Source: Oscillospiraceae bacterium (GTDB lineage: Bacteria; Bacillota; Clostridia; Oscillospirales; UBA929). Taken from it: a DNA stretch of 64,000 bases. The stretch is taken from positions 1 to 64,000 of the forward strand of contig WRKO01000010.1 of the NCBI GenBank assembly GCA_009782215.1, read 5' to 3'. A model generated the notes under the pieces. The model was not told the DNA's origin, searched no databases, and worked only from the letters and a program-made list of their open reading frames with translations. A program made the translations under genes and the position numbers. Positions 38,694 through 38,828 of this stretch are shown here, piece after piece (position 1 is the stretch's first letter; each line of letters starts with the position of its first letter).

Positions 38694-38722
38694 TTGAAAA
38701 AAAGCAACTAAGAGGTTATAAT
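38694..38722 (+). promoter_or_regulatory. Strong plus-strand sigma-A promoter with no gene downstream
   Basis: TTGAAA (38694-38699), 17-nt spacer, TATAAT (38717-38722). No credible ORF follows; a foldable RNA begins 7 nt after the -10. Confidence 0.75.
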
Positions 38723-38728
38723 GACAAT

Positions 38729-38828
38729 GTTCTCGCGGCGCCGGTGAAACGGTTGCGTAAGGTGGGATACGCACCTTCGCAGGGCTTTGATGTTAGCGCA
38801 CCAAAGTCTGCCGCGGGGGCTGGTTTTT
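38729..38828 (+). ncRNA. Predicted structured small RNA (about 100 nt), unassigned family
   Basis: Bases 38729-38739 pair with 38810-38820 (11 bp including three U-G pairs), the first starting at the predicted +1 and the second followed by TGGTTTTT. Inside are a small CCG/CGG hairpin, a 9-bp hairpin (38755-38780) and a hairpin with CTTTG/CAAAG (38782-38808), giving a four-way junction. U-G pairs favour the plus strand. It lacks the SRP GGAAG-type core, tmRNA and RNase P motifs and a tRNA T-arm. It is antisense to the leader of the RCC1/SLH gene. Confidence 0.5.

What the first reader, a model, noticed from the sequence alone, without database searches (positions are those of the whole stretch)
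38694..38828. Candidate small RNA with strong promoter and closing stem at its predicted ends
A near-consensus promoter fires into a region with no ORF. The sequence from +1 forms an 11-bp stem with bases 80 nt downstream, ends at a U-rich stretch, and encloses three hairpins. U-G pairs in the stem favour the plus strand. It does not match the RNA families I know by sight.
Basis: partly seen in the sequence, partly recalled or inferred. Interest (0 to 1): 0.6.

Follow-up and report, generated by a model that had tools for sequence, protein, structure and literature searches.

The report
Antisense RNA switch for surface proteins
The spot holds a real small-RNA gene, one of nine copies in this gut bacterium (order Oscillospirales), lying head-on against the leader of a cell-surface protein gene; relatives in many other species suggest that the small RNA decides whether transcription of that gene stops early.

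Summary
A near-consensus promoter (38694-38722, +) precedes an RNA of about 97 nt with an 11-bp closing stem, three hairpins and a U run; it folds better than shuffles (z -3.6). It is one of 9 copies in this genome. A covariance model finds it in 51 of 394 Oscillospirales genomes and rarely elsewhere in the phylum; 29 of 36 pairs show compensatory change. Rfam has no match.

A perfect opposing promoter (38894-38866, -) drives a leader that covers the whole sRNA in antisense and ends at an exported RCC1/SLH protein gene. Both promoters are conserved across the family. Most leaders contain an intrinsic terminator whose 5' arm and tail repeat, and co-vary with, the sRNA's third helix and 3' tail.

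Best explanation: a cis-antisense RNA forces premature termination of the leader, as RnaG does for icsA. In 52 of 80 loci the nascent terminator arm is predicted to pair with the sRNA-covered region. The window's own copy supports this step poorly (degenerate U-tract, no predicted switch). Two loops are hypervariable among the nine copies, suggesting copy-specific pairing. No expression data were available.

The parts
38694..38722 (+). Promoter of the small RNA: TTGAAA (38694-38699), 17-nt spacer, TATAAT (38717-38722)
   Evidence: 11/12 consensus; hexamers invariant in the nine own copies while the spacer varies; at least 8/12 in 97 of 101 relatives
38729..38828 (+). Small antisense RNA, about 97-100 nt: P1 38729-38739/38810-38820, P2 38740-38753, P3 38754-38781, P4 38782-38809, U run 38824-38828; exact ends inferred
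   Evidence: Fold z -3.63; covariation in 101 relatives; covariance-model match 38729-38825
38866..38894 (-). Convergent promoter of the leader: TTGACA (38894-38889), 17-nt spacer, TATAAT (38871-38866)
   Evidence: 12/12 consensus; hexamers invariant in the nine own copies; at least 8/12 in 89 of 94 relatives against 10 of 186 control segments
38510..38859 (-). Leader (5' UTR, about 350 nt) that carries the complement of the whole small RNA; start about 38859 inferred from the promoter
   Evidence: Sequence; gene starts with ribosome site on this side in 55 of 92 loci against 14 of 95 mirrored
38594..38644 (-). Terminator-like hairpin T1 of the leader; its 5' arm CGTAAGGT repeats P3 of the small RNA; the tail TTATCTTTG (38593-38585) is a poor U-tract in this copy
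   Evidence: -30.2 kcal/mol; equivalent terminators with U-tracts in 82 of 94 loci
38838..38854 (-). 5' end segment of the leader (GGGAGTCGGCTTGTGCC) that can pair with 38575-38559
   Evidence: Minimum-energy fold of the leader; kept in all nine own copies
38559..38575 (-). 3' partner of the leader's 5' end (GCGCAAGCCGGCCTCCC)
38550..38571 (-). Second terminator-like hairpin AAGCCG..CGGCTT; followed by TTTTTT in several sibling copies, by GATTGGG here
   Evidence: Sequence comparison of the copies
36758..38509 (-). Gene served by the leader: exported protein, RCC1 repeats and S-layer homology domain, 583 aa from ATG at 38509; ribosome site AAAGGGG 38525-38519
   Evidence: Pfam RCC1, RCC1_2, SLH; start read from the sequence

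Best explanation
The plus-strand transcript is a cis-encoded antisense RNA that controls, by premature transcription termination, the oppositely transcribed leader of a downstream gene (here an exported RCC1/SLH protein). Without the small RNA, the nascent leader can pair its X segment (the complement of small-RNA helix P3) with the 5' arm of a leader terminator, which lets polymerase read on. When the small RNA binds the leader it occupies X, the terminator hairpin forms, and transcription stops before the gene. Contact probably starts between the complementary P3 and P4 loops, whose hypervariability would make each copy act mainly on its own leader. Shown by sequence and comparison: both promoters, the plus-strand fold, the leader terminator in most relatives, the co-varying repeats, and a gene start downstream. 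Inferred: that both RNAs are made, loop contact, direction of regulation, copy specificity. For the window's own copy the attenuation step is weakly supported, because its terminator tail is degenerate.
For: Both promoters conserved with variable spacers. Plus-strand structure with 29 of 36 pairs co-varying. Leader terminator in 82 of 94 loci against 27 of 186 control segments. Terminator 5' arm and tail repeat the small RNA's P3 arm and 3' tail within loci more than between loci, p<=5e-5, and p<=1e-4 after thinning to dissimilar loci. Predicted pairing of the nascent terminator arm with the small-RNA-covered region in 52 of 80 loci against 7 with shuffled arms. Blocking that region raises terminator probability from 0.73 to 0.93. 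Gene starts lie on the leader side in 55 of 92 loci against 14 of 95 mirrored. Loops hypervariable against invariant stems among the nine own copies.
Against: No transcript data. At equilibrium most leaders form the terminator even without the small RNA; only 15 of 80 cross 0.5. In the window copy the hairpin forms at 0.97 in both states and the U-tract is poor, and own-genus leaders show little arm pairing (0.03-0.36). Copy L016 in G003 has the small RNA without the opposing promoter. About 40% of loci lack a clear gene start in the tested range.
Confidence: 0.62

Rival explanations
1. Cis-antisense control by another route: the two convergent promoters interfere (polymerase collision), or the sense-antisense duplex is cut by RNase III, and the leader terminator is secondary. 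In this genus, where the switch is not predicted, this could be the main mode.
For: Two strong promoters face each other about 140-170 nt apart in nearly all copies; the window copy shows no predicted switch.
Against: Neither collision nor RNase III explains why the leader terminator repeats and co-varies with the small RNA's P3 arm and tail, or why the plus RNA keeps a base-paired fold.
Confidence: 0.17
2. The small RNA acts mainly in trans, on other messages or on a protein, and its overlap with a leader is a by-product of where the copies sit.
For: Copy L016 in G003 keeps promoter and fold but has lost the opposing promoter; strong plus-strand structure.
Against: The opposing promoter, leader terminator and gene start are conserved with it across many families; the loops usable for trans pairing differ between copies.
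Confidence: 0.09
3. The element is a non-autonomous mobile repeat (MITE-like); the inverted ends are transposase sites and the RNA has no regulatory role.
For: Nine dispersed copies in the genome; matching inverted ends; some relatives sit beside recombinase or transposase genes.
Against: Promoter hexamers outside the inverted ends are conserved while their spacers are not; compensatory changes keep the RNA fold; placement relative to gene starts is not random.
Confidence: 0.05
4. A type I toxin-antitoxin pair in which the minus transcript encodes a small toxic peptide and the plus RNA is the antitoxin.
For: Overlapping antisense pair in several copies per genome, as in some type I systems (general knowledge).
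Against: Downstream reading frames are unrelated proteins of about 60-800 aa (surface proteins, recombinases, regulators), not a common small hydrophobic peptide. Small peptides inside the leader were not searched systematically.
Confidence: 0.03

Closest known systems
RnaG / icsA of Shigella flexneri (PMC5394118)
   Same: A structured antisense RNA from a strong convergent promoter overlaps the 5' part of a surface-protein message; loop contact promotes an intrinsic terminator in the nascent message; promoters 120 nt apart.
   Different: RnaG is 450 nt and a single plasmid case; here the RNA is about 97 nt, chromosomal, multi-copy and spread over an order; the terminator repeats the small RNA's own helix and tail. 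No sequence relation found.
Plasmid control RNAs of pT181 and pIP501 (antisense-induced attenuation; PMC5415839)
   Same: Cis-encoded antisense RNA opposite a leader induces attenuation before the gene.
   Different: Those control plasmid replication proteins; here the genes are exported proteins and mobile-element genes. No plasmid hit for the one member searched and no Rfam match to a control-RNA family at its cut-off.
Mobile/repeat sequence candidates of bacterial RNA surveys (PMC11109978)
   Same: Several copies per genome, some beside recombinase genes.
   Different: Has two conserved promoters and a conserved place upstream of gene starts.

Membership tests
Any RNA family in Rfam 15 | Match at or above the family's gathering score | tested here: not met
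   Window and 16 relatives give no such match at the site; ctRNA_pGA1 reached 25.8-33.6 bits against a cut-off of 45
Antisense-RNA-controlled attenuators (pT181, pIP501, RnaG type) | Antisense RNA with its own promoter opposite the leader of the controlled gene | tested here: met
   Both promoters in the window and in relatives; whether the RNAs are made is not known
Antisense-RNA-controlled attenuators (pT181, pIP501, RnaG type) | Intrinsic terminator in the leader before the gene | tested here: inconclusive
   Met in 82 of 94 family loci; in the window copy the hairpin is present but the U-tract is degenerate
Antisense-RNA-controlled attenuators (pT181, pIP501, RnaG type) | Alternative pairing between the antisense target region and the terminator arm | tested here: inconclusive
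   Predicted in 52 of 80 loci; not in the window copy or its own-genus siblings
Antisense-RNA-controlled attenuators (pT181, pIP501, RnaG type) | Antisense RNA raises termination in the leader | not testable with these tools
   Needs in vitro transcription or reporters
Type I toxin-antitoxin | Small toxic peptide encoded by the target RNA | tested here: inconclusive
   Downstream genes are diverse proteins; short frames inside the leader were not searched systematically
MITE-type repeat | Target-site duplications and random placement relative to genes | tested here: inconclusive
   Placement is not random. Duplications were not tested.

The most novel reading that the evidence does not exclude
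One genome carries nine copies of an RNA switch whose pairing loops have diversified so that each antisense RNA addresses only its own leader. The result would be a set of independent, possibly bistable (convergent, mutually antagonistic) switches over different surface proteins: cell-to-cell surface variation without DNA rearrangement. The same module is also used by integrative elements and transposons to hold down their recombinases.
Probability: 0.22. Interest if true: 0.86.

Novelty: new variant of a known kind. Interest (0 to 1): 0.7.

Why it matters
To my knowledge antisense-controlled attenuation is known mainly from plasmid replication genes and a few isolated cases such as RnaG. This looks like a conserved, portable module, spread over a major order of gut bacteria and occasionally beyond, placed before surface-protein and mobile-element genes, and not in Rfam. 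If true, it offers a natural library of related antisense/leader pairs with differing loops, useful for studying RNA recognition and orthogonality, and a handle on surface-protein control in bacteria that are hard to manipulate.

Tried and rejected
Rfam at gathering and relaxed thresholds: no family at the site. tRNA/tmRNA: none at the site. Protein-coding reading of the plus strand: only short ORFs, and the conservation is that of a structured RNA. A minus-strand riboswitch-only reading was weighed: the minus strand folds less well and the G-U pairs fit the plus strand, so the plus RNA is kept as the structured molecule and the minus strand as a leader. Phages and plasmids: the pattern gave no hit in viral contigs; L096 gave no plasmid hit and one partial hit in an unannotated faecal phage record. 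The equilibrium folding test alone was only partly supportive, so a co-transcriptional intermediate was tested. The match in G003:C34 (L054) does not fold as the family when read on the strand tried and was left out. Literature searches found no description of this module; the supplementary tables of the large microbiome RNA survey PMC8040213 could not be opened, so an unnamed entry there is possible.

Full report
WHAT WAS CLAIMED.

The promoter TTGAAA-17-TATAAT (38694-38722) matches 11 of 12 consensus positions. The RNA 38728-38832 folds at -49.8 kcal/mol against a shuffle mean of -38.7, z -3.63, with 0 of 200 shuffles as good. It has four helices with almost no unpaired junction: P1 38729-38739/38810-38820, P2 38740-38753, P3 38754-38781, P4 38782-38809, then TTTTT at 38824-38828. 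The minus strand of nearly the same stretch folds at -34.9. Rfam gives nothing here at the gathering cut-off and nothing credible at relaxed thresholds.

IT IS A FAMILY. The window is G000:C10. The element occurs nine times in its own genome; the other eight copies are 84-88% identical to this one. It is also in same-genus G003, in G012, and in part in G001. A covariance model of the plus RNA (R1) found full-length relatives in other families. A DNA pattern from those relatives brought 51 loci, mostly labelled Oscillospiraceae or relatives (Flavonifractor, Pseudoflavonifractor, Oscillibacter, Agathobaculum, Lawsonibacter and others). A second model (R2) found it in 51 of 394 Oscillospirales genomes, with up to ten matches in one genome, and in 7 further genomes among 398 sampled across the phylum. 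In an alignment of 101 copies, 29 of 36 pairs show changes on both sides. There are 596 such cells against 198 in shuffles; the covariation score is 0.481 against 0.180 shuffled and at most 0.107 when partners are slid. The alignment was fitted to the model, which leans towards the structure. Conserved G-U pairs (P4 base G-U in 98 of 100 rows, P2 base in 75) fit the plus strand only.

THE MISSED HALF: A CONVERGENT LEADER. A 12/12 promoter TTGACA-17-TATAAT on the minus strand (38894-38866) would start a transcript that runs antisense through the whole small RNA and, after about 350 nt, reaches ATG at 38509 of an exported protein with RCC1 repeats and an S-layer homology domain. Among the nine own copies both pairs of hexamers are invariant (diversity 0.000), while their spacers vary (0.21 plus, 0.44 minus, the latter close to unrelated flank at 0.49). 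Across relatives the plus promoter scores at least 8/12 in 97 of 101 and the minus one in 89 of 94, against 10 of 186 control segments for the minus one. A start codon with ribosome site and at least 100 aa lies 80-420 nt into the minus side in 55 of 92 loci, against 14 of 95 on the mirrored side and 34 of 296 at displaced positions.

DOWNSTREAM GENES. They are not one family. In own-genus copies: RCC1/SLH, fibronectin-III/SLH and leucine-rich-repeat proteins with signal peptides, and a chemoreceptor on the minus side of the G003 copy L016. Elsewhere: exported copper-amine-oxidase-N-domain proteins, a BspA-type LRR/SLH protein, SLH and DUF6591 proteins; small helix-turn-helix (HTH_17) proteins followed in L105 and L129 by integrase-like frames; a serine recombinase, an IS605 OrfB/TnpB-type transposase and a PemK/MazF-like protein.

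THE LEADER TERMINATOR REPEATS THE SMALL RNA. In 82 of 94 loci the minus leader contains an intrinsic terminator better than -10 kcal/mol within 300 nt beyond the small-RNA promoter, against 27 of 186 controls. Its 5' arm repeats the 5' arm of small-RNA helix P3 (typically GTGTAGG), and its tail repeats the small RNA's 3' tail (typically TTTTTGTTTT, with an otherwise unneeded G). Hence both are complementary to the part of the leader that lies opposite the small RNA. The repeats change together: L062 and L160 GTGTATGG, L152 GTGCATGG, L066/L067 TGCTGAGT/TGTTGAGT, L157/L158 tails TTTTTAATTTCC, L159 TTTTATTATCT, L093/L110 four instead of five T before the G. Longest common stretches are longer within loci than between: arm 6.59 vs 5.55, tail 8.91 vs 6.88, p<=5e-5. 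After thinning to 45, 27 and 18 dissimilar loci the difference remains (p<=1e-4). This does not remove ancestry completely.

FOLDING TESTS. When the terminator's 3' arm has not yet emerged, its 5' arm is predicted to pair with the small-RNA-covered region in 52 of 80 loci, against 7 of 80 with shuffled arms (Wilcoxon p = 1e-13). In the complete leader, blocking the small-RNA-covered region raises terminator probability from 0.73 to 0.93 on average, and 15 of 80 loci cross from below to above 0.5. So the direction is as expected for attenuation, but at equilibrium most leaders would terminate anyway; kinetics would have to matter.

WEAK POINT: THIS WINDOW. In the window copy the terminator hairpin T1 (38644-38594, -30.2 kcal/mol) is predicted to form at about 0.97 with or without the small RNA. 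Its tail is TTATCTTTG, and a second terminator-like hairpin (38571-38550) is followed by GATTGGG where several sibling copies have TTTTTT or TTTTTC. Own-genus leaders also give low arm pairing (0.03-0.36). In this genus a helix between the leader's 5' end (38854-38838) and 38575-38559 may act instead. The window copy may be constitutively open, decayed, or controlled in another way.

LOOPS. Among the nine own copies, diversity is 0.50 in the P3 loop and 0.56 in the P4 loop, but 0.00-0.07 in stems and 0.09 in the P2 loop; the plus-promoter spacer of the same elements reaches only 0.21. No two copies share both loops. This suits kissing loops that specify each small RNA for its own leader, though loops free of constraint could also drift.

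MECHANISM. Shown: promoters, fold, terminators, co-varying repeats, position before genes. Inferred: both RNAs are made; small-RNA binding to the nascent leader favours the terminator; the effect is repression; loops set specificity. The closest mechanisms are RnaG on icsA, where convergent promoters 120 nt apart and a kissing complex promote a terminator (PMC5394118), and the pT181/pIP501 control RNAs (PMC5415839). No sequence relation to these was found, so it works like them rather than being filed as one of them. Rivals are promoter interference or RNase III processing (0.17), a trans-acting RNA (0.09), a MITE (0.05) and a type I toxin system (0.03).

NOVELTY. No Rfam family matches and no paper found describes it. 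An unnamed entry in the supplementary tables of a large microbiome survey (PMC8040213) cannot be excluded. I rate it a new variant of a known kind.

Noticed in passing
L095:3702-3800 and L104:7448-7546: Two nearly identical family members differ by an exact inversion of the P4 loop (GTTGGCGC against GCGCCAAC); other pairs of loop orientations (GGTAGGAGC / GCTCCTACC) occur among relatives, which hints at hairpin-loop inversion.
   Followed up: no
L018:1501-1528 (G000:C22:18210-18237): A remnant in the own genome that keeps one inverted end and the minus promoter but lacks the small RNA.
   Followed up: no
L016 / L031 (G003:C2): A copy that keeps the small RNA and its promoter but has neither the opposing promoter nor the leader terminator; it sits between a chemoreceptor gene and an aminopeptidase-like gene.
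   Followed up: partly
L095, L115, L118, L100, L109 leaders, between terminator and start codon: A second conserved hairpin (CACC..CCGGGGGC..GCCCCCGG..GGTG) follows the terminator in many Oscillospiraceae leaders; its role is unknown.
   Followed up: no
L058:1224-1393 (-): Sub-threshold Rfam match to cyano_tmRNA (30.3 bits, E 1.2e-4) close to a family member; ARAGORN found no tmRNA there.
   Followed up: partly
window 41068-41604 (-): ORF that resembles a MazF/EndoA-type endoribonuclease by its sequence (GDIYYADLSPVVGSEQGGIRPVLIVQN); recalled from memory, not searched.
   Followed up: no
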